Made by a program: the position numbers and the translations under genes. From positions 13,969,265 through 14,033,264 of the forward strand of contig JASSKH010000001.1 in assembly GCA_031763025.1 (NCBI GenBank): a stretch of DNA of 64,000 nucleotides, read 5' to 3'. The notes under the pieces were generated by a model, which did not search any database, had not been told where the DNA came from, and saw nothing but the letters and a program-made list of their open reading frames with translations. Below are positions 36,500 to 54,087 of the stretch, piece after piece. Numbering within the stretch: position 1 is the first letter of the stretch; each line of letters begins with the position of its first letter. Source of the stretch: Macrocystis pyrifera (lineage: Eukaryota > Sar > Phaeophyceae > Laminariales > Laminariaceae).

Positions 36500-38080
36500 T
36501 TGATTCTTTGATCTTCCTCGGACGAAACATGTGCAGTTCATGCAGATCATACAGATCCCATCCGGTGAAGATGTACATATCAAACAGACCAGGATCCCAC
36601 TCAGGTACACACGTGCCAAATATTACAGATCATACAGATCATACAGATCCTGCACAGGTCATGTAAACCCACCGATAAACATGTGCAGATCATGCAGATC
36701 GCACAAACCCCATGTCGGTCATGATGGAACATATCATATAGATCACATATATTCCACACAGGTAGATCATACAGATCCTGCAGATCACTATCACACATAT
36801 CAAGTTCCCACTCAGGTACACGCGTGTAAAATATCTATCTCATACAGATACCACCCGGAAAATATGTACAAATCACACACAACATCCTCCTCAGGTACAC
36901 ACAAGCCAAATATTACAAATCCTGCAGAGCATACAATTCCTGCAGGTCATGCAAACCCACCGATAAACATGTGCAGATCATGCAGATCACACAGACCCCT
37001 TCCCGGTCAAGATGAACAGATCACACAGATTCCACTCAGGTAGATCATACAGACCCTGCAGACCACACGTATGTCATGTGTACAGATCATACAGATCCTG
37101 CAGATTACACATAGGTAATACCACACCGATCAAGTTCCCACTCAGGTACAAACGTGTGAAATATCTACCTCATACACACCCCATCTCGGCTAAACATGAT
37201 GTAAAACAAGTGTGAATTATCCAGATCTTACAGATCATACAGACATACCGCAGATCATACAAATCATACAGATCCTGCAGATCATGCAGACCCACCGATA
37301 AAAACGTTCATATCATGCAGATCGTGCATACTCTATCCCGGTGTACAGATCATACAGATCACGCAGATTCTACTCGGGTAGATCATACGGATCCTGCAGA
37401 TTATACAGATCCTACAGATCAATGACACCCACCGATAAACATTTGCAGATCATGCAGATCGTACAGACCCTATCTCGCTCAAGATGTACAGATCAGGCAA
37501 ATCGGACAGATCCCATCCCGGTCGAAACGCATTGATTGTACAGATCACACAGATTCTACTCGAATACACATCCATGAAAATTTAGCCACACAGATCCCCT
37601 TCAGGCTAAGCATGTGCATGTCATTGACATCAACCATATCTCACCTGGCACACAAGTGCAAATGATAAGGAACGTACATGTCTCCCCTGGCAAACTAGAT
37701 GGAGTGTGCAGATAATAGATCCTTCAGATCATGCCGATAGATCCCCCACATCATGCACACATGTCATTCAGATCATCCCACTTGGCACGCAAGTGTAATC
37801 ATAAAGACCAAACAGATATCACCGCCAAGAAAAGGGTGATACATCTACAATATACAAATTGTACAGATCCTTCAGATCATGCAGACCCACCCACGCAAAG
37901 CTATTCATCAGTTAATCACGGTAAATGTATGTTCGATTATCATGTGTAGTACATACAGATCGTGCAGACTCTACCCTGTAGAGGTGTTCAGATTATCAAG
38001 GATCACACATACTCCGAAGTATATATATATATCGATGATACAGATCCCACCCAGGCGATAAATACCTGGATGATACAAAT
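36500..38080. repeat. CAGATCATACAGATCCTGCAG minisatellite region
   Basis: About 1.5 kb made largely of CAGATCATGCAGATC, CATACAGATCCTGCAG and CCCACCGATAAACATG blocks in irregular order. They recur at about 36650, 36960, 37290 and 37430 as higher-order units. Non-coding. Confidence 0.85.
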
Positions 38081-38212
38081 CCCGCCAATTTCCTTCTGAG
38101 TGCTACTCTTTCCTTTGAGCAATAAAGTAGCCCATGCCACCTATTCGCCAAGCCATGCGAGAGCATCGAAGACTAGACTACTCCTCTTCGCCTTTAGCTA
38201 TATTACACTACT

Positions 38213-38320
38213 ATTACGGGGGACCATAGTAAACAGGACCAAATGTTGTTAGTAAAAATACCTAAATATATAGGTTTTTTATGTATGCCATAGGTCCTGT
38301 TAACTATGAACCCCCGTAAT
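38213..38320. mobile_element. MITE-beta copy
   Basis: ATTACGGGGGACCATAGTAA at the left, CTATGAACCCCCGTAAT at the right, with TAAATATATAGGTTTTT in the centre. Flanking TA dinucleotides on both sides may be the target duplication. Confidence 0.8.
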
Positions 38321-38589
38321 ACTGTAACCCATTCCTCATTTTTCTCCGAGATCATTTTTACTCAAACCAGAGGTGCAAGGGTTTTTCCTGCGTCTCCCTT
38401 TTCAACTTGCGACACCCTCCAGATTTCATGTTTCATGCCACCCACATCCCGAAGGGGAGCTGTGTACTAACATGCGATATCACATCAAATACACAAGAAG
38501 AGCATACTTTGAAGGTGCAAGGTGATGAGGTGATAAGTAAGGTGAAGGTGCGAGGTGGTGAGGTGATACATGAGGAGGTGAAAGCGCAA

Positions 38590-39025: not shown

Positions 39026-39676
39026 AATTCATAACTATACAGTCGATTACTTTTTACTTCGCCTTCATTTTGCGATCCTCGTCGTATGTTTCGGTGCTCT
39101 CGTGAATAACCCCGCTGTTGAATATACATGTCAATCTGTCGTTTGTGTAAACAACCGAGATGTTTTTCACTGGCCAACAGAGCGTCGTCAGCTCTCTGAC
39201 CGCTTGTTGGGGATCTCTTATTATATTTCGCGATTGGGGGCCGCAGAGTTCACCGGGCGGATCGCCATCGTGTGAGCGCTTACTACCCGCCAATTGATAT
39301 TTAGTTGGGTTGGGCGTTGGAATTACGGCCTGTGTGCCGGGTTGTGCTGCGCATGCAGTGTGTGGTGTTTGTTGTGCTGCGTGTGCTCGATATAGTCGGG
39401 GAAAGATTGTAGTCGATAATTTCCAATTACTACGAGAGGCTATCGGTTGAGTCACGCGTGCTGGATCGGGGTGCTCCTCCACGCCGCCGACATTGCTGCT
39501 GCTGTTTGAGGGTGATAGCTGCGAGTTCATACTACACCGAGAAGCGGGTTGTACTTGGGTTGGGGGTTTGGATCGTATGGCGGTGCTCTACGTGTGTTGT
39601 TGCTGCAGAGCTGCGGCTGCTCCTGCTGCATGCTGCGGCAGAGCTGTGCGGTGTGTTGTACGATGTGCTACACTAT

Positions 39677-39952
39677 CGTTAAGATATTGTCTTGTATGAG
39701 ATTGAAAGCCCGGTAACTACCTGGGTTCAGTCACTGGGAACGTATTTGTAGTACCTGGAAGGCGTATCTTAGACGGAAAACCAGGGTTTTCCAGAGGAGC
39801 ACGAGCTTGGTCTCAGTCTCCGTGTGCACGAAAGGCATAAAACTGCTCTTCTTCTATAGCTAAGCAAACAACACATGTGAGTACAATGTTTACCGACTCA
39901 AAAGGCAGACCTGTCCAGGGATACAAAGTGTCCCGCAAGCTTGATCTCAACA
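39677..39952 (+). repeat. 5' LTR of Ty3/gypsy element
   Basis: 276 bp, about 95% like 51979-52252. It starts CGTTAAGATATTGTC (TGTTAAG in the other LTR) and ends GATCTCAACA; the ends form the short inverted repeat usual for LTRs. CTAT precedes it at 39673-39676, and CTAT follows the 3' LTR at 52253-52256, consistent with a target-site duplication. Confidence 0.95.
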
Positions 39953-40069: not shown

Positions 40070-41550
40070 ATGGAGACTCACGAGGTGGAAGGGTCTGCTT
40101 CCCCTCACGGTGGCCGAGCCACTGAGGCCCAGGGCCCCATTTCTGTCTTGCCTTTTCCCTCGTCGATCGACCCTTGCGAGGCCGCACAGCAACTCATGCG
40201 TTCGGTCAAGGCCTCCGCCTCTGATATTCTCATGATGTGCAACGATGGCAGCCATGAAGGCCTTAGTTCTACTAACTGGATCCCCGGTTGGGAGTACCCT
40301 CTCAAGAAATCCTTCGCGCGCGCCATCACGCCTGACAAGCCTACGACCGTCCCTCTCACTACCTTGATGGATGATTTTTTTGGACAGGTCAGCAGGATCG
40401 TCGGGACCGGAGGCGTTCACGCTCCTCCTGAGGTTGCTGAGCAACCACTTTGACCGCACCAACACGGGGGCCAGCTACACCAAGTTGCATAATTTTGGCG
40501 TGGCTAACGGGACCCCTTTTTGCGATTTTAGTCGTGCATTGCGAGGGGTGGTGTCCGCAGCGACGGGGACTGAGCGTGTTTTGGCACCGGGGGTGGAGGT
40601 CGTTTTGGAAGTAGTTCGGATGACAGTGAACGAGCAGTACCCTAGCTTGATGCCGACGCTGTACCCGGGAGTTTTGGCTACGGTATCGAGGCCGTTCGGC
40701 ACTTTGGACGCCATGTGGTTAGCTTTCGAGACTCTTGCGAATAATAAGACACCTGCCGTCAACGGCGAAAATATTTTTATTTGCCTGCTTCTTCGACGGG
40801 TGAGCGGTCATCCGCCCCGTCGGGGCCCCGGCCCACCAATATTGGTCGCGGCCAGGGCCGGACGTTTCCCCAGTCGCCTTCTTGGCAGGCGGGATTGCTC
40901 AATAATCCGCTTGTGATGAATGTCCACAAATCCATCCCTGACTGCCTCGACCCGTGGCTTGACACCTCTTCCAACTGCTGGCCCGTTGAGGAACACCACT
41001 ATGCCGAATTCACGCCGTTTGCATGTCTATCCAGACCGAGGACCCTCCCCTCTGGAGCGGCCTACTTTCATCGTCCGCTCGCGCAGCCGCCCTCAGCGAA
41101 AACCGAGGACGCTGTTTAAACTGTCACGAAGACACACACTCTCTTCGACAGTGTAGACACCCCTTTTTAAACCTTAGTGGTATCTTGAACCCCGACCTCG
41201 GAACGCTCGGCGACGACGGCGAGGCGTTCCGTCGTTGGCAAGAAGGCATGATCAGACACCGCCGCGAGAACAATTCACGACCGAAGAAATATAACCAGAA
41301 GAAACACAGGCGTCGTCCCGGCCCCTCGCGTGGGCAACATCACGGCCAGGGTCAGCAACACAGACAAGGTGATGGCTACAACACACACGCGGCACGAGGA
41401 CACCAGCAGTCTCACTCCGGCCATCATGGTGGTTCGACCGCCCCTACCTCTTCCGCCCCGGCTCCCGTCTCGGGGGGTTCGCTACGGTGCCTCGCATACC
41501 TCGGGCGGAAACCCGAATGGACGCCAGCCAGGCACCTTCCGCGCCGGTAA
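40070..41550 (+). pseudogene. gag: Ty3 Gag with CCHC zinc knuckle, frameshifted
   Basis: An ATG at 40070 opens a 127-codon frame (METHEVEGSAS...). The reading then moves to another frame near 40400, again near 40780, and again near 41030. Read across these shifts, the product has a capsid-like helical part (TKLHNFGVANGTPFCDFSRA, MTVNEQYPSLMPTLYPGV) and a basic, Gly/Pro-rich part. A nucleocapsid knuckle CLNCHEDTHSLRQC (C-x2-C-x4-H-x4-C, about 41110-41150) follows, then a Lys/Arg/His-rich tail (41240-41420). Gag builds the particle and packages RNA. At least three shifts mean this copy cannot make it whole; some could be sequencing errors in long homopolymers, but the shift sites are not in long runs. 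Confidence 0.75.
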
Positions 41551-42443
41551 CTGACAGGTCGACGGCGGTTCGGCTTCTCCTGATCGCCCGCCGCCAGCAT
41601 TGTCGGGAGAAAAACCTTGATTTCACAAGATGCACACGTCCCAGGCTCGCTCAGTACTCCGCTCCCGCCCCGCGCGTTACTCCATACTTCGGACCGACGC
41701 AGCGACTCAGCTCCACTGCTTTTTCCGGGGAGCCCTCGGGCGCCTTCCCCGACGTCGGGAGCCCGCGCCTCAAACGCCGCTCCCCTCAACCTGGGCACGA
41801 GAGCAGGCACGATAAACGCCTCTCTCCCAAACCACGCACCACGCAACACGACGGGTGTCGCGCCGTCGCGTTGTTTTTTTTTCAGCGAGGGTGTCCCCCT
41901 CCTACACCTCCCAGCCATGCGGTGGCGGTCGGTTTGAGGTGCGGGAAGGCAAACACCGAAACCCCGAGATCTCGGTTGAAGCTCGACTCGGCGTTTCCTC
42001 GCAATAACGGTGGCCGCTCCACCCTTTTTCCTATTAAGGAGGAGTCGACAAGATTAGCTACCTCGTCCCCCTTCCCCACCAGGTCTACAGGACGGAAGCC
42101 CTCTCCGGTGGACCCCTTGTTGCCCCCCATCCGAGCACCGTTCTTGAAGACGTCTACAGGGTCTGCAGGCCCTCTTTCGTCTTCGCGCACGCCACTCCAC
42201 GTGCGCAGCGCTCCTTCGGCTCCAGTGGAACAGGAAAAACCTGGCACTGTCCGTCGAGCCAGTGGTGCCTCCACGGCCTCCGGTCAGATCAACCGGACAG
42301 CATACCCGTTAAATTCGGAAGAATCGCAGCTCTCGTCAAGCAGAACGGGCTCAGAGCCCCCTGCCCCCTTTGGTCCAGGACAGAGATCATCGGGCGCAGC
42401 AAGAGAACCTTCTGGCGATTTTTTTGCCTGCGGGCAATGGTGA
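41487..42443 (+). CDS. Pro/Ser/Arg-rich linker frame between Gag and NADAR
   Basis: A frame of 318 codons with no stop, rich in P, S, R and T (for example SSSRTPLHVRSAPSAPVEQ). It lies between the Gag tail and the NADAR-protease frame and overlaps the latter by 74 nt in another frame. Its composition suits a disordered linker of the polyprotein. No domain is recognised. A shift is needed to enter the next frame. The G+C-rich composition makes chance open frames more likely, so coding status is inferred from position. Confidence 0.4.
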   Translation: MPRIPRAETRMDASQAPSAPVTDRSTAVRLLLIARRQHCREKNLDFTRCTRPRLAQYSAPAPRVTPYFGPTQRLSSTAFSGEPSGAFPDVGSPRLKRRSPQPGHESRHDKRLSPKPRTTQHDGCRAVALFFFQRGCPPPTPPSHAVAVGLRCGKANTETPRSRLKLDSAFPRNNGGRSTLFPIKEESTRLATSSPFPTRSTGRKPSPVDPLLPPIRAPFLKTSTGSAGPLSSSRTPLHVRSAPSAPVEQEKPGTVRRASGASTASGQINRTAYPLNSEESQLSSSRTGSEPPAPFGPGQRSSGAAREPSGDFFACGQW

Positions 42444-43545
42444 CACAGAGCCAATGTACGTGGAACCGGACTCGTCTCGTGCACCAGGGGCTCAGTGTTC
42501 TCAGAGAAGCACACTCCCCCCCCCACACGCCGCAACTGCGGCCACCGACGACTCGGCACCGTCGGGTTTTGACCGTACTCTCGAGTATACAACGGAGCGG
42601 GTGGTACTGTTCTGGCAGCCCCCCTCTTATTTTTCGCAGTGGTCCCCCTCGTCTTTTGTCGTCGACGATGTATCATATTCCTGCGCGGAGCAGTATATGA
42701 TGGCTGAAAAGGCTCGCCTTTTCCAGGACCACGGCACAGCGGAGCGGATTATGGCCTCGCCCGACCCACGCGAGCACAAACGCCTCGGTCGAGGCGTGCA
42801 TAACTTCGACTGCGCTATCTGGGACCGTGTTCGGGAAGACGCCGTCCTTGCTGGTAATTTTGCCAAATTCTCGCAGAACCCGGTCATGAAGCAGCACCTA
42901 TTGAGCACTGGCACCAAAATTTTGGCTGAAGCCAGCCCTTTTGATGCCGTGTGGGGCATCGGTCTGCGGGCAGACGACCCCCAAGCTCACGACCCCTCAC
43001 GGTGGCATGGAAAAAAATTGCTCGGTAAAGCTCTTTCCGCCGTTCGCGACACCCTCCGATCAAGTGAGGCCGGGTTGGCACACCCCGCCTCCTCTCACCA
43101 ATTCTGCACCCCAACCAGACCTGACAGAATTCATGAGATTACACCAGCGCCGCCCCGCCCTTTGGCCGTGGCCCGCGCTTGCCCAGGTCCTCCTTTGGAG
43201 TTTTCGACCTATTTTTCTGACGCGCCGGCTGATCACAGCCCCGAGATTTTGGCTGTCGCACCTAGTGCCGACCCCTCCCTCGTGCTGCCAGAACACGGCC
43301 CCTGCCTCGTCGGGGGCACCATTACCCTCGATGACGCCTCTTTTACAACGAAAATCGCGATTCACAGCGGAGCTGGCGTTCTTGCACCTTTTGGTTGCGT
43401 GGCGCTTCTCGACACTGGCTCCCCGCAGACTTTCATCCGACGAGATGTTTTGGATCGCATGCACTCGGTTGGTGCGGCATCCCTCGCGTGCGAGCAGAAA
43501 GGCGTCCCTCGTTCTTGGGGGGGTTTTTGCGATCGGCCCCTCTGA
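42370..43545 (+). CDS. NADAR (YbiA-like) domain fused to retroviral-type aspartic protease
   Basis: A continuous 391-codon frame. Residues about 79-231 form a full NADAR domain: VLFWQPPSYFSQWSPS, then YSCAEQYMMAEKARLF, PREHKRLGRGVHNFD, an NFAKFSQNPVMKQHLLSTG block, ILAEASPFDAVWGIGL and RWHGKKLLGKAL. The conserved E of AEQYM, the KFSQN and the EASP acidic residue are all present. In studied NADAR proteins the domain cleaves N-glycosidic bonds, including ADP-ribose from guanine in DNA/RNA and riboflavin-pathway intermediates. After a linker, residues about 314-360 carry the protease active site ALLDTGSPQTFI (DTG at 43411-43419). The protease C-terminal half (VLLGRDSW, near 43655) lies in another frame after a shift at about 43530. 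I see no ATG favoured as a start; it was probably made as part of Gag-Pol. No break lies within the NADAR region itself. Confidence 0.85.
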   Translation: MVQDRDHRAQQENLLAIFLPAGNGDTEPMYVEPDSSRAPGAQCSQRSTLPPPHAATAATDDSAPSGFDRTLEYTTERVVLFWQPPSYFSQWSPSSFVVDDVSYSCAEQYMMAEKARLFQDHGTAERIMASPDPREHKRLGRGVHNFDCAIWDRVREDAVLAGNFAKFSQNPVMKQHLLSTGTKILAEASPFDAVWGIGLRADDPQAHDPSRWHGKKLLGKALSAVRDTLRSSEAGLAHPASSHQFCTPTRPDRIHEITPAPPRPLAVARACPGPPLEFSTYFSDAPADHSPEILAVAPSADPSLVLPEHGPCLVGGTITLDDASFTTKIAIHSGAGVLAPFGCVALLDTGSPQTFIRRDVLDRMHSVGAASLACEQKGVPRSWGGFCDRPL

Positions 43546-44385
43546 AGACTTCGACGAGTGTGCGCCTGAGCGTCCAATTTTTTCGAGAAAATGAGCCTAC
43601 TTGCTCCCTCGCAGTTTGGGCCTGCGTGGTCCCCCCCTCGGTGATGCAGCATGCTGTACTATTGGGACGTGACAGCTGGATGCGCTTTAATAGCCGCTCC
43701 TACCACTCTCTGCCACCTCGGCCGTCTGATCCAACGCGTTTTTGGCGATCTGGAGTTAGTTCACCACGCCCCGACAGGCATGTCCGTGTACGCCATCGAC
43801 TCCGCCGCTTCGGGTGGAGGCTTCCATCTACGCTACGAGGGCGCAGCAGGCGTCACCCTGTCCGACGATCCCCAGCTGCTTGCTGTGAATTTGGTTCGAA
43901 GCGATGGCTCCCCGGCCCTCACTGGACACTACTTGGTCGACATGATGCCCCAGCCCAACCTACCCTCGGTCGAGGAGCACTTCGTCTCCTCCAGACGACA
44001 GGTTCTTCCCCTCGTTGGAGTGGCGGCTGTCGAGCCGGGGGATGTCCTCGGCGTCGCCCACGCCCCACTGCTGAGCGTTCCGCTGGACGTTTTGCAGCAG
44101 GACAACCGAGCCCCCAGTCCTCCCTCCGGACTAGGTGAGGTGTGTCCGGTTTCAGCAGTTACTGCCCCCCCCCTCGCAGCGCCAGCCTCGCCCTCGCCTG
44201 CACTGCTTGAGCGTTTGACCTCAGAACAGCGCGCTTCGTTCCTGCGCGTCTGGGCACGCTTGCCGACACATCTGCGGGAGGTGGCTTTTGATCTCCACGG
44301 CACCGGCTGGACCCCTGTGGTCATTGAACAGCTGGGGGACGTTCTCTGCGAATTTCCTGACGTTTTCACACCTCAGATAACGTAA
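43545..44385 (+). pseudogene. pol: Protease C-terminus and protease-RT linker, frameshifted and interrupted
   Basis: The protease end (LAVWACVVPP, HAVLLGRDSWMRF) reads in one frame to about 43700. The linker then continues in a second frame from 43651 (RSDGSPALTGHYLVDMMPQ, and later LTSEQRASFLRVWARLP and LGDVLCEFPDVF). At 44366 the coding stops because a foreign DNA element is inserted, and translation runs into a stop at 44385. The sequence resumes at 46845 beyond the insertion, after one copy of the 8-bp duplication. Confidence 0.75.
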
Positions 44386-45478
44386 CACTCGGATAACACT
44401 TATCTACGTTATGGGGCCTAACACAGGAACGTGGTAACGTACTAACATAGTGTTAGCACTAGAGGGGCGATCACGGTAACGCAGTAACACAGTGTTAACT
44501 GGAAACCCACGAACGTGCACGAGCCTTACTGTTATGTTGCTGCTCGGTCTCGTCCAGCTCTGGTACAGTAACATTATGTTATGCCGTGATCAGTCCTTGA
44601 ACTAACACCGTAACACAGTGTTAGCTTTGACGAAACACGTACTTTATCACTCTCCCAGATCGATATCCGCATGTTTACTAACACGATAACATAATGTTAT
44701 TGTCGACGCAGCGTTAGACGTAACACAATAACATTATGTTACCCTTAGGAGGAGTGTTAAACATAACACCCTATCATAACGTTACCATGTTCGCCAGCAC
44801 TACTAACACATAACATTGTGTTACAGATAACACACTAACGTAACATAACGCAATGACCAGCGCTACTAACACTACGTTATCTGGACCCCCCATCTGATTG
44901 CCTTAGGGTCGGATAACGTAACCACACCTCGGATAACGTAACACTCGGATAACACTTATCTACGTTATGGAGCCTAACACAGGAACGTGGTAACGTACTA
45001 ACATAGTGTTAGCACTAGAGGGGCGATCACGGTAACGCAGTAACACAGTGTTAACTGGAAACCCACGAACGTGCACGAGCCGTAACGTAATGTTGCTGCT
45101 CGGTCTCGTCCAGCTCTGGTACAGTAACATTATGTTATGCCGTGATCAGTCCTTGAACTAACACCGTAACACAGTGTTAGGCTTTGACCAAACACGTACG
45201 TTATCACTCTAACATTCCCAGATCGATATCCGCATGTTTACTAACACGACAACATAATGTTATTGTCGGCGCAGCGTTAGACGTAACACAATAACATTAT
45301 GTTACCCTTAGGAGGAGTGTTATACATAACACCCTAACGTAACGTTACCATGTTCGCCAGCTCTACTAACACATAACATTGTGTTACAGATAACACACTA
45401 ACGTAACATAACGCAATGGCCAGCACTACTAACACTACGTTATCTGGACCCCCCATCTGATTGCCTTAGGGTCGGATA
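44367..45478. repeat. 556-bp tandem duplication inside the element
   Basis: The segment beginning CACACCTC at 44367 starts again at 44923 with the same terminal sequence, and the two copies match closely with small substitutions and indels. An internal copy of the terminus is therefore present. Confidence 0.85.
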
Positions 45479-46836
45479 ACGTAACACTTAACGTACGTTA
45501 GATACGTTACAGTCTTAGCCGGCGCATGCGTAACATTATGTTAGGATGTTAGCCTAAATGCGGAAGTCCCTGCAACATTATGTTACGGTGTTACCGTCAG
45601 TAAAGATCTGATGGTAACATTCCGTTACCGTGTTACCATCAAAACCAATCCGGGTCTAACTTTTTGTTACTGAGTTACCGTTGGGGCCGAAGTCGTTCTA
45701 ACGTAATGTTACGACGTTACCCTTTGGATCTTCCCGAGATCTAACATGTGTTACCTGTGTTAGTGGTAAAGCGGGCGTGTGGGAGTAACATAGCGTGCCG
45801 TGTTATCCAATTTCGCCGACATCCCAGTAGGGAATACCTACAAAAATATCCCCGGGGGGGGAGGATAGCATGGCATCCCCGGTAAAAAAAACGCCTCCAG
45901 ATTTTAAAAACCCCAAACAGGGGATATTTAGGATGGATCCCCGCAAAAAAAAACGCCTCAGTTTTTTGTGGAAACCCCGCCAATACGTTATCCATCTATA
46001 ACACATTACGTTATCCATCCATAACGTAATCTGCACACTCGCACGTACGAGTTAACACGGCAGTAACATATTGTTGAGTTTAGATTGGGGGTGTACGTTA
46101 TCTACTAACTTGTGTCACTACATACATTGCATACGAGTTAACGACATTAACATAATGCTATTAATAGTGTTTTATCGATCATATACGTTATTATCCGTTT
46201 GACGTTTGTTATGTTGTTATGGTAGCAAGACTTCCGTAATACCCTCACATAACGTCGCTCGAAACGGACTGCTGCTGCGGCTGATACAGTAACATAATGT
46301 TAACGTTGTATTGACCATGCACGTCATCTCTCTAACGTGTGTTACGATGGCCCCTAGAAATTTCACTAACACACTAACATAGTGTTATGTACGCGTTTAT
46401 TTGGCCGTGTACGTTATCCGTCGAAAGGGTGTTACGGTAGCACGAAGAATCCCGCGGACACACTAATATAACGTTACTCGCTACGGGCTGATGCCGCTAA
46501 CACGGTAACATAATGTTAACGTTTAAGTGACCATGTACGTTATCCCTTTAACGTGTGTTACGGTAGCCACCAGGAATTCCGCTAACACGCTAACATAGTG
46601 TTACTCGCTATGGGATGCATACCCTAACACCGTAACACATATACTGCGGTCAGTACGAGATCAAGGTAACACTCTAACATAATGTTACGCGATCGCCCGC
46701 CAATATCACAACACACTAACACTATGTTATCACAAAATCCAGAAAGTAGTTAACGTAGTAACGTAATGTTACGTGTTTTTTTCGCTGACGCCTAACATTA
46801 ACATAAAACGTTAAGTGTTACGTTATCCGAGGTGTG
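44367..46836. mobile_element. Palindrome-array DNA element (TIR, 8-bp TSD) inserted in pol
   Basis: 2470 bp bounded by inverted ends: CACACCTCAGATAACGTAAC at the left and the reverse complement of CACACCTCGGATAACGTAAC at the right. It is flanked by GACGTTTT on both sides (44359-44366 and 46837-46844). The 8-bp duplication and ends starting CA suggest a hAT- or P-like transposition mechanism. There is no transposase or any other ORF, so it is non-autonomous. The interior is almost entirely TAACAYWRTGTTA palindromes (such as TAACATTATGTTA and TAACACAGTGTTA) and GTAACAC spacers. A 556-bp segment including the left end is tandemly duplicated (44367-44922 and 44923-45478). A different AT/GC block without the motif lies at about 45805-45985. 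Confidence 0.9.
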
Positions 46837-46844
46837 GACGTTTT

Positions 46845-48180
46845 CTCGAAGTCCAAGTCGGATTTTTTTCCTGCTCGTTGATGACTTTCGTGATCTCGGT
46901 CCCGGAAGGAAGCGCTCCTGACACGTCCAGGCCGCACCGCATCAACCCCATCCTGGCCAAGGAAGTGGAGGCCACCTTGGATCAATACCTAGCGGCAGGT
47001 CTGATCCAGCACTCGACTTCTCCGTACTCGAGCCCGCTGGTGGTCATCCCGAAGAAGTCTGGAGGCGTTTGGATCACCGCGAACTACAAAAAACTCAACC
47101 AGATCAGCAAACTCAGCCAGCTGCCTATCCCTCGCGTGGACCAAGTCCTCGACTCCCTGGGGAAGGGACGGGTGTTTTCCCTCTTCGATTTGGTCTCCTC
47201 GTTCCACCAGATTACCGCGCACAAGGACACCGTCCCTCTTACGGCGTTCTGCACTCCGACGGGCCTTTACGAGTGGCTCGTCATGCCCCAAGGCAGCAGT
47301 GCTTCGCCCGGCTGGTTCGTCAAGTGATTAACGAAGTCATTAAAGGCCTGGCACAAGTGGCGGCCTACCTTGATGATGTGATCATTTTCGACTCTGACCC
47401 GACGGCCCACGTCAAGACGATACGAGCCCTCTTCGAACGCCTGCGCAAACACAACCTCAAGCTCTCCCCCTCGAAGACTCGCCTCGGCGCCACGGACGCC
47501 AATTTTCTGGGCCACTCTATTTCGCCCGCGGGTATAAGCCCTAATGCGGAAAAAGTTTCGGCCTTGCTGAAAATGCCGATGCCCAAGAACCTCAAGCAGG
47601 TCCGCGCCCTGATGGGCGGCGTAGGATATTATCGCAAATTCCTGCCCGACCTGTCTAAACGGATACGTCCTCTCACCGCCCTTCTCCGGAAGGGGGTCAA
47701 GTATGTCTTCACGCCGGCTATGGAAGTTATCGTCCGCCAGATCCTCGCCGAGTTCGCGGCCCCACCGATTTTGATCTTCCCTGACTGGGATGCCGTAGCC
47801 GACGGCTCCCGCCCCTTCCACGTGTACTGCGACGCCTGCATCGACGGTTTCGGTGCCGCGCTCGAACAAGAACAACCGGGCGGCTCGGTACGGCCCAGTG
47901 CTTATATCAGCCGCGCTACCCTCGATTCCGAAAGGCACTGGACACCGTTGGACGTGGAAGCTGGCAGCATTGTCTGGGCTATCAAACGACTCCGAGGTTA
48001 CCTGTGGGGCACGAAGTTTCGAATATTTTTCGGACACAAGGCACTTGAGAGTATCGCCAAAGTAGGGGACCACAACGCGCGAGTCCAGCGGTGGCTCGAG
48101 TTCCTCACCGCGTTCGACTACACCCTCGAGTACCGCAAGGGCAGCGCCAACGGAAATGCTGGCTTTCTCTCCCGCTTGCC
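46845..48180 (+). pseudogene. pol: Ty3 reverse transcriptase and RNase H, frameshifted
   Basis: RT fingers and palm read from 46875 in one frame (ISVPEGSAPDTSRPHRINP, LIQHSTSPYSSPLVVIPKKS, VFSLFDLVSSFHQI) to a stop at 47327. They continue in another frame from about 47310 with the catalytic YLDDVIIF (the two Asp at 47372-47377), FLGHSISPAGI and GGVGYYRKFLPDLS. RNase H follows (YCDACIDGFGAAL, HWTPLDVEAGSIVWAIKRL). The position that is usually D in the DHKAL motif reads FGHKAL (48032-48034), so a catalytic acid is lost, and SANGNAGFLSRLP has G where D is usual. A one-base deletion is also evident near 46865. Together these copy RNA to DNA in active relatives; this copy could not. Confidence 0.9.
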
Positions 48181-49480: not shown

Positions 49481-50270
49481 ACGAGCCTATTCACTTTTAT
49501 TTACCGCTGCTCATGCGCCCCTGGGTCATGCAGGCTTGCCATTCTACGACTTCCTGCCACCTAGGAACCGCGCGCACCCTACGTATGCTCGAACGTTTCT
49601 ACTGGTGGATCGGCATGAGCATCTGCACCCGGTGGTGGCTACGCAACTGCTTAAAGTGCCAGGCACGGAAAACGTCGCGGCATTCGGTCCGGTGGTCCTC
49701 CATCACGTTGCCCTTGCCAGAAGGGCCCGGCATCGCCGTCAGCATCGACTATTTCGGCCCCCTCCCGGTGACGCCTCGAGGTATTACCTACATCTTGCTT
49801 TTCACCGATCGTTTCAGCCGCCGAGCTGACATGTACGCCGTCACAGCGGCCGAGTTCACCGCTGAGGGCACGGCTAACATTCTCATCAACCTGTGTATCC
49901 CTCTTTGGGGGTGCCCGCGCAGCATCCTCTCGGACAACGGCCTCCAGTTCTGCTCCAAGCTTTCGCAAGCCGTATATCAGCTTCTCGGGGTTCGAAAAAT
50001 TGCCACCAGCTCCTACCACCCAAACGGCAACGGTGGGGTGGAACGTGTAAACCGCACGATGGTCCGGATGTTGGCAATGGTCGTCAACGAGCTCCAAAAC
50101 AACTGGGATGAACAGCTCCCTCACGTCGAATTTGCGTACAACAATTCCGTCAGTGCCGCCACGGGTCTGGCTCCCAACGAGGTACATATGGGTCGGCTCC
50201 CACGCCTCCCACTCACGATTTTCGAACGTGCTGGAGTCACCGGCCACAGAGCTTGGCCCGCGACCACCTC
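49481..50270 (+). pseudogene. pol: Ty3 integrase
   Basis: The zinc-binding module has HSTTSCHLG (H-x5-H) and later NCLKCQARK (C-x2-C, about 49648-49670). The core carries SIDYFGPLP, LSDNGLQF and GNGGVERVNR, which supply the D, D and E catalytic residues (about 49747, 49938, 50039). After FAYNNSVSAATGLAPNEVHMG the frame is lost near 50250. There a 22-bp duplication (two CAGCAGCGCGCGT-type units) and a shift occur before the next frame. Integrase inserts the cDNA into the genome. All core residues are present, so the domain itself is intact in this reading; the polyprotein is not. Confidence 0.9.
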
Positions 50271-50439: not shown

Positions 50440-51387
50440 TTGGGTGTGGGTGTACAATACGGCGGCCACCATCCGCCAGGGCGCGAACCCAGACACGGGC
50501 GCCAAGGTCCTCAAGGCCAAACTCTCACTCAACTGGACGGGCCCTACAAAGTTCTCGCAGTTGGCCCCTGCTCCTCAGCGGACACCCCGGATGGATCTCT
50601 CGGAGCGAAGCTCCTGTATTTGGATCTTCCTTCCGATATGCCCGGCGCCGAGGCTCGCCGGCGCGTATCTGTTCAACGCTGCAAGCCCTGTGCCAACCCC
50701 CACGACCGTGGCGACATGCCGAAGTATTTGCCGGCGGGGTTGACCCAATACGTGCTCAACAATTTCTCCAAGAAATCCCCTCCGTACCACGTCACCGAGG
50801 ACGACGTTTCGACCCCTCTTGAACGACTCGAAGTGGAAAAGATTACTGGACATCAATCGGTTAGAGGTCGAGGTGGCGTCATCGCGGTGATGTACGAGAC
50901 GCACTGGAAGGGACTTTCCCGGCCATCCTGGGAACGGGAAGTGAACCTTCAGCTTTCTCGCCACGCAATTTTGCGCTACTGGGCCGGCACCCCGAACCAA
51001 CACCGCCAAACCAACCGCCTGTACCGCCGAATGAGAATTGGCGTGGCACAACGGGAGCTTTCTCGGAGTAACGGCGAGGGGTTTCTGGCACCCGGCTATG
51101 GTTGCGTATCGCACGCCGATTGGCTCCGCCGCTACAGCAACACTGTACTTCCCAACGGGGCCCACTTTTGGTACAAGGGCGACGACGATCTTTGGTGGCT
51201 CGGGAAAATCAGCGCAACTACACCGACGGATGAAGTATATTGGTTCGATTTTTGGACGACCCGGGACCAATCAAGCTTCCTCTTTCTCCGGCGCGCTACA
51301 CGACTTCGACGAGAGCTGTACGAGGTCCTTGGTGTCTGCAAATTCACTTGGCTAGCGCGTTTACACGGGGGGTCCAGCGTAACGTAG
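50440..51387 (+). CDS. pol: Integrase C-terminus, chromodomain and extra C-terminal domain
   Basis: A 315-codon frame. The first part is the integrase tail (LDGPYKVLAVGP, LLYLDLPSDMPG, RRRVSVQRCKPC). Residues about 125-188 form a chromodomain: LERLEVEKITGH, then VIAVMYETHWKGLSRPSWER. Chromodomains of this class steer integration towards modified histone H3. Beyond it are about 110 residues ending in a Trp/Tyr-rich module (HFWYKGDDDLWWLGKIS, VYWFDFWTTRD) that looks like an SH3/Tudor-type barrel; that is inference. The frame ends at a TAG at 51385, about 590 bp before the 3' LTR, a stretch with no further domain. Confidence 0.8.
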   Translation: MGVGVQYGGHHPPGREPRHGRQGPQGQTLTQLDGPYKVLAVGPCSSADTPDGSLGAKLLYLDLPSDMPGAEARRRVSVQRCKPCANPHDRGDMPKYLPAGLTQYVLNNFSKKSPPYHVTEDDVSTPLERLEVEKITGHQSVRGRGGVIAVMYETHWKGLSRPSWEREVNLQLSRHAILRYWAGTPNQHRQTNRLYRRMRIGVAQRELSRSNGEGFLAPGYGCVSHADWLRRYSNTVLPNGAHFWYKGDDDLWWLGKISATTPTDEVYWFDFWTTRDQSSFLFLRRATRLRRELYEVLGVCKFTWLARLHGGSSVT

Positions 51388-51978: not shown

Positions 51979-52252
51979 TGTTAAGATATTGTCTTGTATG
52001 AGATTGAAAGTCCGGTAACTACCTGGGTTCAGTCACTGGGAACGCATTTGTAGTACTTGGAAGGCGTATCTTAGATGGAAAACCAGGGGTTTTACAGAGC
52101 ACGAGCTTGGTCTCAGTCTCCGCGTGCACGAAAGGAATAAAACTGCTCTTCTTCTATAGCTAAGTAAACAACACGTGTGAGTACAATGTTTACCGACTTA
52201 AAAGGCAGACCTGTCCAGGGATACAAAGTGTCCCGCAAGCTTGATCTTAACA
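51979..52252 (+). repeat. 3' LTR of Ty3/gypsy element
   Basis: 274 bp, starts TGTTAAGATATTGTC and ends GATCTTAACA, so here the terminal inverted repeat TGTTAAGAT/ATCTTAACA is perfect. Flanked by CTAT at 52253-52256. Confidence 0.95.
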
Positions 52253-52584
52253 CTATGGAAATAAAATTCCCAGAAAAACTTATACTACCAAATAATATCA
52301 TAATGTACTTGGTCGGAAAAGTGCCCACGTACTTATTTTGGGAAAAACCTTATTTCACGCTGGTCGTTCCTTATTTTGGCATCGCATCAAAGACTCGATA
52401 GGCGCTTTTTTCTTTAATCTTCCCTATATAAGTACATAATATTCGTAGTGTCTATTATAGTACGACCACGAGTAGTGTCGATTACTTTGTAACCGTCGTG
52501 CGTACCAGCGCAATGTCAAGAACTCCGCTGCAGACCACTGCTGTGCCGCCGTAGATCTGTCACTTTCGTCATTCCCACTCTTCT

Positions 52585-52691
52585 ATTACGGGGGTCCATA
52601 GTTAACGGGACCAAATTTTGTTAGTAAAAATAGGTAAATATATAGGTTTTTATGTACACCGTAGGTCCTATTAACTATGGACCCCCGTAAT
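52585..52691. mobile_element. MITE-beta copy (best palindrome)
   Basis: Ends ATTACGGGGGTCCATAGTTA and TAACTATGGACCCCCGTAAT are exact inverted repeats of 20 nt. GGGACC/GGTCCT follow inside, with an AT-rich centre. 107 bp, no ORF. Confidence 0.9.
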
Positions 52692-52957
52692 AGTAGTCAT
52701 GGGCTGTGAAAGCGTCTGGTTCATCACTACTACTGACAACACGAAAAAGTCTAATTCATTTTCATTTTGCGATCCTCTGTGTGGTGCAGACATCTTCTAG
52801 AATCTGCCTATATTCGTTTCTCTGTCGATTAACTTTGTCACTGCTTCTTTGGGACATTGTAGTTCGCTTTTATTTTGCGATCCTCTGTGTGGTACAGACA
52901 TGTTCTCTGTCTATTTTGATTAGTTTGTGACACGTCGTATATTTCGGTACTCTTACT

Positions 52958-53066
52958 ATTACGGGGGTCTATAGTTAACAGGACCTATGGCATACATAAA
53001 AAAAATATATATTTAGGTATTTACTACTAACAATACTTGGTCCTGTTAACTATGGACCCCCGTAAT
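52958..53066. mobile_element. MITE-beta copy
   Basis: ATTACGGGGGTCTATAGTTA at the left and TAACTATGGACCCCCGTAAT at the right, 109 bp. It lies 266 bp from another copy of the same family. Confidence 0.9.
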
Positions 53067-54087
53067 ATTAATAGTGATTGGTGGTAATGAGGCGCGACCT
53101 CAGCGATACACCTGCAGTAGTCATATCTATCTGCGATGCATCATGTTGGGCGAATACGGATTATTCTGTATTGTGCGGATCCAACACGAACGAACATCTA
53201 CGTACAGTATGTGGTTCTCACCTCGAAATTCGAATAATTTTGAAGACGAAAAATCTGCACCTGACATGTTTTGTCCAGCAGGAAGAGCTTCTCGTACCAG
53301 GTGCCACCACTGCTACTGATGTACGATATCTACAGCAAGCAGAGCTTCTCCAGCAACAAAACAGCTGCAAACAGCAGCAGTAGCGGTAGGGACACACGAG
53401 GCCAGGGTCGGCGTCGCTACACGCTCGGCTTGTGTCGGTTTAACCCTTGAATCCTTTGTACACGTACGTACTCGATTTTGTTGTGTGTTTCTGGGTTCCG
53501 CACTCAAAATTTGAAGACGAAAAACCTACAACCTTACATGTGTCCAACAGAGCTTCTCGTAGCAGGTGCCACCACTACTACTGCTGTACAACATCTGCAG
53601 CAGGTCTTCTCCTGTTCCTCCGTTCTCTCATCAGTAGGAGGGTGGGCCTGACAACACCACGTGCAGCCCGTCTTGGGGACATGGCCCGAACGTTGCTGTG
53701 GACAGGCACAGTCTGCCTACGAGTACTCGTAGAGTTGGGTTTCGTTCGGTAGAACTCAAAACACAAAAACCGTTATGATGCGGTTGTTGGTTCTGTTTTT
53801 TTTCAACCATGGCCCAGCCATGTGCCTACACACGTTGCCGCACCTAGCACGACCAACTGTGAACGACTTACCACCGCACCAGCAGCACGAGAAGGTTTCG
53901 TTTGTGTGTGTGCGTGCACATAGCCCGCCGGGACTGGAATAATTGGGGCCGTGTGCGTTGAGCGCGATGGTCCAACGTGGCCGAAGAAAAAATTGAATCA
54001 TGATGACACACACCCACACACATACACACATACAAACAGAAAAACTTAACACAAGGCACCCTACCCTCGTGTGCGAGCCGTTATGAA

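What the first reader, a model, noticed from the sequence alone, without database searches (positions are those of the whole stretch)
42604..43062. A NADAR (YbiA-like) glycosidase domain encoded inside a Ty3/gypsy polyprotein
Seen: a 391-codon frame holds all the conserved NADAR blocks (AEQYMM, KRLGRGV.NFD, NFAKFSQN, TGTKILAEASPFD..WGIGL, W.GK.LLGKAL), then a DTG aspartic protease in the same frame. The frame lies between a CCHC Gag and RT of an LTR-bounded element. Known: NADAR enzymes remove ADP-ribose from guanine in nucleic acids and act as antidotes to guanine-targeting ADP-ribosyltransferases. Inference: the element may use it to strip a host ADP-ribose mark from its RNA or cDNA, as a counter-defence, or to manipulate NAD metabolism during reverse transcription. 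I do not know of a well-described retroelement family with this domain, but cannot exclude one.
Basis: partly seen in the sequence, partly recalled or inferred. Interest (0 to 1): 0.93.

Follow-up and report, generated by a model that had tools for sequence, protein, structure and literature searches.

The report
ADP-ribose-removing enzyme in algal retrotransposon
A jumping gene present in very many copies in what is probably a brown alga carries a conserved enzyme domain that, in its relatives, strips ADP-ribose from guanine; the combination was reported in Ectocarpus in 2025, and its role is still unknown.

The parts
39677..39952 (+). 5' LTR (first base C where the 3' LTR has T); CTAT target duplication at 39673-39676
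40990..41550 (+). Gag fragment frame with a CCHC zinc knuckle (C-X2-C-X4-H-X4-C) starting at 41113
42370..43545 (+). Open frame with NADAR then the DTG motif; N-terminal part of Pol, cut short in this copy
42610..43059 (+). NADAR domain (PF08719), YbiA subfamily
43408..43545 (+). Start of the putative aspartic protease (LDTGSPQ motif), 798 nt after the start of the NADAR core, the spacing also seen in sister copies
44367..46836 (.). Nested insert absent from sister copy L031: inverted terminal repeats of 23 bp (one mismatch) and an 8-bp target duplication GACGTTTT; interrupts Pol between protease and RT
47046..47521 (+). Reverse transcriptase (RVT_1), in two frames in this copy
47807..48115 (+). 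RNase H (RT_RNaseH)
   Evidence: 1.9e-26
49510..50022 (+). Integrase zinc-binding (H2C2) and core (rve) domains
50830..50982 (+). Possible chromodomain after the integrase; 20.1 bits, below the 25.1 cut-off
51979..52252 (+). 3' LTR, followed by the CTAT target duplication at 52253-52256

Best explanation
A Ty3/gypsy lineage of (probably) brown algae carries a NADAR domain as a standing, selected part of Pol, directly ahead of the protease. SHOWN: fold, conservation of most ligand-contacting residues, fixed position across many copies and several lineages, and constraint. INFERRED: the domain is an active ADP-ribosyl-guanine hydrolase that enters the virus-like particle as part of (Gag-)Pol. 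There it removes ADP-ribose from guanines of the genomic RNA or the single-stranded minus-strand cDNA, so that reverse transcription is not blocked. The source of the modification would be a host or environmental ADP-ribosyltransferase that has not been identified.
For: Pfam, PDB-sequence and fold matches. In 30 element-borne NADAR rows (de-duplicated at 88% identity) the residues equivalent to Phytophthora NADAR E43, K50, R79, W89, E125, D130 and W133 are kept in 29, 29, 30, 29, 28, 29 and 27. In the genome: 1264 candidates, 150 scored, 150 over the cut-off. Of 150 scored RT places 40 pair with a scored NADAR within 6 kb, 38 of the 40 at about 1950-2000 bp. Of 20 random unpaired RT copies 14 have it, some of them broken, and 6 lose the element before reaching it. 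Between element A and 10 polyproteins of other lineages (some close kin of each other) NADAR is 54.7-60.7% identical, against 45.4-54.6% for the protease in the 8 with a long protease match. Among copies matched by family A DNA, shared variants have a nonsynonymous/synonymous ratio of 0.435 against 0.816 for private ones (one-sided Fisher p = 0.034). Published NADARs hydrolyse guanine-ADP-ribose in ssDNA (PMC11543638) and RNA (PMC11833690); passages read.
Against: No activity was measured. DarT (PF14487) gave no match in the genome; the PARP search did not complete. The position equivalent to R93 varies (18 R, 3 K, 9 other of 30). Constraint on NADAR within family A is weaker than on the protease (0.28 against 0.80 for its private variants) and the test is marginal. 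Family B's NADAR is less like A's (51.7%) than its protease is (55.7%). One polyprotein near the base of the RT clade (P0169) has 263 residues ahead of its protease and no NADAR, so the domain is not indispensable to every relative. On RNA, E. coli YbiA was less active than the DarT1-linked E. coli C7 NADAR (PMC11833690), and YbiA also acts on riboflavin intermediates (PMC11543638); our domain is of the YbiA subfamily, so its true substrate may be another.
Confidence: 0.45

Rival explanations
1. House-cleaning enzyme: the domain hydrolyses an N-glycosidic bond in a damaged or unwanted small molecule (modified nucleotide, riboflavin intermediate, free ADP-ribose derivative) in or around the particle, much as dUTPases are carried by some retroviruses beside the protease (analogy recalled, no call).
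For: E. coli YbiA acts on riboflavin intermediates (PMC11543638, passages). The sequence is of the YbiA subfamily by its glutamate at the E125 position. The place directly ahead of the protease resembles that of betaretroviral dUTPase (recalled).
Against: The NADARs tested in PMC11833690, YbiA included, acted on guanosine-ADP-ribose RNA, so a nucleic-acid activity is the simpler expectation.
Confidence: 0.2
2. Signal breaker: the domain degrades soluble NAD-derived alarm molecules made by a host immune response, as proposed for many phage NADARs.
For: PMC9503650 (passages) argues that phage NADARs mainly meet soluble ADP-ribose derivatives.
Against: The same paper argues that NADARs embedded in polyproteins of eukaryotic RNA viruses target macromolecular ADP-ribosylation. 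A Pol-fused enzyme would be made at low level and be particle-bound (inference).
Confidence: 0.13
3. Non-catalytic use: an RNA- or ADP-ribose-binding or structural module of Pol.
For: Constraint within family A is only moderate, and one ligand-contacting position, R93, varies.
Against: The other seven ligand- or catalysis-related positions are kept in 27 to 30 of 30 element rows, and the divergent family B keeps them too.
Confidence: 0.1
4. Chance insertion of a host NADAR gene into this one copy.
For: None found.
Against:: same position in many copies, two families, Ectocarpus and other sources.
Confidence: 0.01

Closest known systems
Ectocarpus NADAR-bearing Gypsy lineage (e.g. Gypsy-12_Ec32), PMC12477816 (section 5 part 1 and passages read)
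   Same: [quoted passage not shown] Polyproteins of Ectocarpus sp. CCAP 1310/34 with both NADAR and RT are among the close relatives by RT (e.g. P0128, 74% over the RT-RNase H query taken from family B).
   Different: Different genome (537 Mb) with two co-resident families. Here NADAR groups with stand-alone brown-algal NADARs rather than bacteria; the paper suggests possible horizontal transfer from its mostly bacterial blastp hits. I did not compare with the named consensus itself.
Phytophthora nicotianae NADAR (PDB 8bau)
   Different: PMC11543638 describes it as an orphan YbiA-subfamily NADAR, not a retroelement domain; ours is Pol-embedded
E. coli YbiA (PDB 2b3w)
   Different: Bacterial enzyme linked to riboflavin metabolism (PMC11543638)
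NADAR and macrodomains in polyproteins of positive-strand RNA viruses (PMC9503650, passages)
   Same: An ADP-ribose-processing domain embedded in a replicase polyprotein
   Different: RNA viruses, not LTR retroelements
Tx1 LINE ORF1 NADARs of Crassostrea gigas (mentioned in PMC12477816)
   Same: Retroelement-borne NADAR
   Different: Non-LTR element; not examined here

Membership tests
NADAR superfamily (PF08719) | Profile match above the curated cut-off over the whole domain | tested here: met
   171.5 bits vs 35.1, profile positions 2-163 of 163
NADAR superfamily (PF08719) | YbiA-like fold | tested here: met
   [not shown]
NADAR, YbiA subfamily | Glutamate at the E125-equivalent position (aspartate in BC4488, histidine in phage forms; PMC11543638, PMC11125620) | tested here: met
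   E in the window and in 28 of 30 element rows
NADAR superfamily (PF08719) | Hydrolysis of guanine-ADP-ribose | not testable with these tools
   needs purified protein
Ty3/gypsy LTR retrotransposon | LTRs with target-site duplication | tested here: met
   276 and 274 bp, 258 of 273 aligned bases identical, CTAT
Ty3/gypsy LTR retrotransposon | Domain order Gag, PR, RT, RNase H, integrase | tested here: met
   RT, RNase H, INT by Pfam in the window; Gag CCHC and PR by motif only; one natural frame of sister copy L031 holds NADAR, RT and RNase H
Chromodomain-bearing Gypsy | C-terminal chromodomain | tested here: inconclusive
   20.1 bits (window), 16.2 and 13.1 in two sisters, cut-off 25.1
Ectocarpus NADAR Gypsy lineage | NADAR at the N-terminus of Pol plus RT relationship | tested here: met
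   RT tree of 38 hand-chosen rows: all 19 NADAR-labelled rows, Ectocarpus ones included, lie in one 30-row clade, 100/99; the named consensus was not available
DarT-NADAR toxin-antitoxin system | Adjacent DarT ADP-ribosyltransferase | tested here: not met
   No DarT match in the genome, six frames, introns not joined

The most novel reading that the evidence does not exclude
Brown algae use guanine ADP-ribosylation of nucleic acids as a defence against retroelements, and a whole Ty3 lineage has long kept an on-board NADAR as its counter-defence: a retroelement-encoded RNA/cDNA de-ADP-ribosylase, pointing to an undescribed host writer enzyme.
Probability: 0.25. Interest if true: 0.88.

Novelty: new member of a known kind. 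Interest (0 to 1): 0.5.

Why it matters
If the domain is active, it would be a retrotransposon-encoded eraser of a nucleic-acid modification, and it predicts that brown algae (or their surroundings) put ADP-ribose on guanine of element RNA or cDNA. The physiological role of NADARs outside DarT systems, eukaryotic ones included, is stated as open in PMC11543638 and PMC11125620 (passages). Element copies under selection make that question testable with one purified domain and one modified oligonucleotide.

Tried and rejected
Chance insertion into one copy: rejected. Host gene beside the element rather than inside it: rejected, since one uninterrupted 1696-codon frame in sister copy L031 holds NADAR, RT and RNase H and database polyproteins carry both. 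Direct capture from a sampled bacterium or virus: not favoured. Element NADARs, family B apart, group with stand-alone brown-algal proteins; the 80 viral loci kept (of 474 confirmed) reach at most 51% identity, and none of the 80 has an RT or protease match at E <= 1e-3. Support is moderate (90/89), the rows (48 of 94; 39 of 94 plus 40 viral) were chosen by hand, and hits were gathered with family A as query. Host-to-element or element-to-host is undecided.

Second, independent capture in family B: undecided. RT of A and B is 78% identical and they pair in the RT tree (86/95), but their NADARs are 52% identical, less than A's to lineages with 58% RT identity. The AU test does not reject A+B (p 0.19) or one clade of all element NADARs (p 0.10), and is borderline for all but B (p 0.055). 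Fast change in B is as good an explanation.

A search with family B's NADAR among long proteins gave 331 candidates and none at E <= 0.001; I do not read this as absence. Selection figures for RT (0.02 shared, 0.24 private) rest on copies chosen by protein score and are not comparable; NADAR copies L001-L030 were chosen by score too. The relation of the Gag and Pol reading frames was looked at in four sister copies and the window and left unresolved. In one search the count of label changes is not meaningful, because many unlabelled rows are truncated element frames. In one search one of 39 chosen rows was too short and dropped.

Literature: 'NADAR'+'retrotransposon' (7 of 7 listed), 'NADAR'+'ADP-ribosylation' (20 of 30), 'NADAR'+'Gypsy' (2 of 2), and two of 'NADAR', 'transposable element', 'brown alga' (15 of 456). 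I opened five papers (PMC12477816, PMC11543638, PMC9503650, PMC11125620, PMC11833690) for passages, and one section of the first; the rest were seen as listings only. Among the five only PMC12477816 was seen to describe NADAR in a retroelement. The library holds only openly licensed papers.

Full report

STATE OF THIS COPY. It is not intact. The NADAR frame ends inside the protease region and the RT is in two frames. Compared with sister copy L031, 2470 bases (44367-46836) sit between protease and RT, with inverted terminal repeats and an 8-bp duplication: a nested DNA-transposon-like insert. The NADAR domain itself has no stop.

IS IT THE FAMILY OR ONE COPY? In the window's genome (537 Mb, 223 contigs) the first look gave 1264 NADAR candidates; 150 were scored and all 150 pass the Pfam cut-off. 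Thirty were cut out, one of them (L015) the window's own. My start motif recognised 25 of the 30 (L005, L008, L011, L023 and L027 were dropped), falling into two families by eye, A with 19 (window-like) and B with 6. Of the 25, 24 have a DTG motif 797-800 nt (A) or 827-837 nt (B) downstream, 16 of the 24 in the same frame. A search with family B's NADAR gave 1263 candidates; the 150 scored are 72-100% identical to it. A search with family A's RT gave 2730 candidates, 150 scored. From 109 unpaired ones I drew 20 at random and fetched 2.4 kb upstream: 14 have NADAR at the expected place, several of them frameshifted or partial, and in 6 the element's own sequence stops before reaching it. None of the 20 shows an upstream that is continuous to that point yet lacks the domain. 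In sister copy L031 one natural frame of 1696 codons holds NADAR, RT and RNase H.

BEYOND THIS GENOME. An RT-based protein search (query from family B) listed 120 of 551 hits. Thirty of the 120 carry a NADAR match by my profile (some fragments, e.g. P0146 and P0151), always before RT; 16 have NADAR, protease and RT all detected, always in that order. The NADAR carriers with a name are from Ectocarpus sp. CCAP 1310/34; most have no name. Of the other 90, the more distant ones lack NADAR (for example Aphanomyces P0203, which has room for it), and most close relatives begin at or beyond the protease, so they are silent. Close relatives with room that lack it are P0134 and P0155, which look like fused gene models; P0218, with room for part of the domain; and P0169, which reads as a true NADAR-less relative (263 residues ahead of the protease). 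In an RT tree of 38 hand-chosen rows, all 19 NADAR-labelled rows lie in one 30-row clade (100/99), with P0169 near its base. Gain after that split and loss in P0169 are both open.

IS IT KEPT BY SELECTION? Between element A and 10 polyproteins of other lineages (four of them close kin) the NADAR domain is 54.7-60.7% identical. The protease is 45.4-54.6% in the 8 with a long match, and RT 58.3-70.1%. The 62-residue linker gives matches over only 17-49 residues at 30-39%, or none. Family B is the exception: NADAR 51.7%, protease 55.7%, RT 77.7%. Among 37 distinct copies matched by family A DNA, variants shared by copies have a site-corrected nonsynonymous/synonymous ratio of 0.435, private ones 0.816 (p 0.034, one-sided). 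The protease gives 0.28 and 0.80 (p 0.0002), the linker 0.72 and 0.98 (p 0.31). Private variants should mostly post-date insertion (inference), so this contrast is what a domain used by active copies would show; it is modest for NADAR. Residues equivalent to E43, K50, R79, W89, E125, D130 and W133 of the Phytophthora enzyme (roles from passages of PMC11543638; positions mapped by me) are kept in 27 to 30 of 30 element rows. R93 is not (18 R, 3 K, 9 other). Family B keeps them too.

ORIGIN. Element NADARs cluster with stand-alone NADARs of Ectocarpus, Pylaiella and Scytosiphon and with unnamed proteins, apart from the sampled bacterial group (90/89; SH-aLRT 94 without family B, where family B falls outside with weak placement). 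The 80 viral loci kept reach 51% identity, and 0 of 80 has a matching RT or protease. This differs from the possible horizontal transfer suggested in PMC12477816, but the sampling was driven by family A, so it is a lean, not a proof.

MECHANISM. Published NADARs remove ADP-ribose from guanine in ssDNA (PMC11543638) and RNA, and do not act on phosphate-end ADP-ribosylation (PMC11833690). Both templates of reverse transcription, genomic RNA and minus-strand ssDNA, are therefore possible substrates. Pol-fused placement would put the enzyme into the particle (inference). I put about 0.45 on this template-cleaning role, 0.2 on small-molecule house-cleaning, 0.13 on signal breaking and 0.1 on a non-catalytic role; the remainder covers roles not listed. 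No writer was found: DarT had no match and the PARP search did not complete through repeated tries, so the counter-defence reading lacks its other half.

KNOWN OR NEW. PMC12477816 (Genome Biology, September 2025; [quoted passage not shown] So the kind is known; this is a further member with added evidence. The species of the window is not given; that it is a brown alga is inferred from its relatives.

Noticed in passing
window 44367-46836: A 2.47-kb insert with 23-bp inverted terminal repeats (one mismatch) and an 8-bp target duplication; a unit of about 560 bp is repeated inside it (97%). Looks like a non-autonomous DNA transposon nested in the retroelement.
   Followed up: partly
L033, L034 and one search places: Family B's NADAR is much more divergent from family A than its RT predicts (52% against 78% identity): fast change or replacement of the domain.
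   Followed up: partly
P0169: A polyprotein near the base of the NADAR-bearing RT clade that lacks NADAR although it extends 263 residues ahead of the protease.
   Followed up: partly
P0021, P0024, P0025, P0028: Stand-alone brown-algal NADAR proteins with a cysteine-rich N-terminus are close relatives of the element domain; host gene taken by the element, or element domain taken by the host.
   Followed up: partly
genome contig C189:13953140: Another NADAR place lies about 16 kb before the start of this window on the same contig and strand.
   Followed up: no
genome contig C200: Many of the listed family B places lie on one 22-Mb contig, C200; not tested against contig size.
   Followed up: no
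window 36522-37502: Dense block of short imperfect direct repeats (CATACAGAT-like units); 36 copies of a 40-nt reference reported.
   Followed up: no
window 38205-38321 and 52577-53067: Related repeats of 43-75 bp, direct and inverted, on both sides of the element, about 14.5 kb apart.
   Followed up: no
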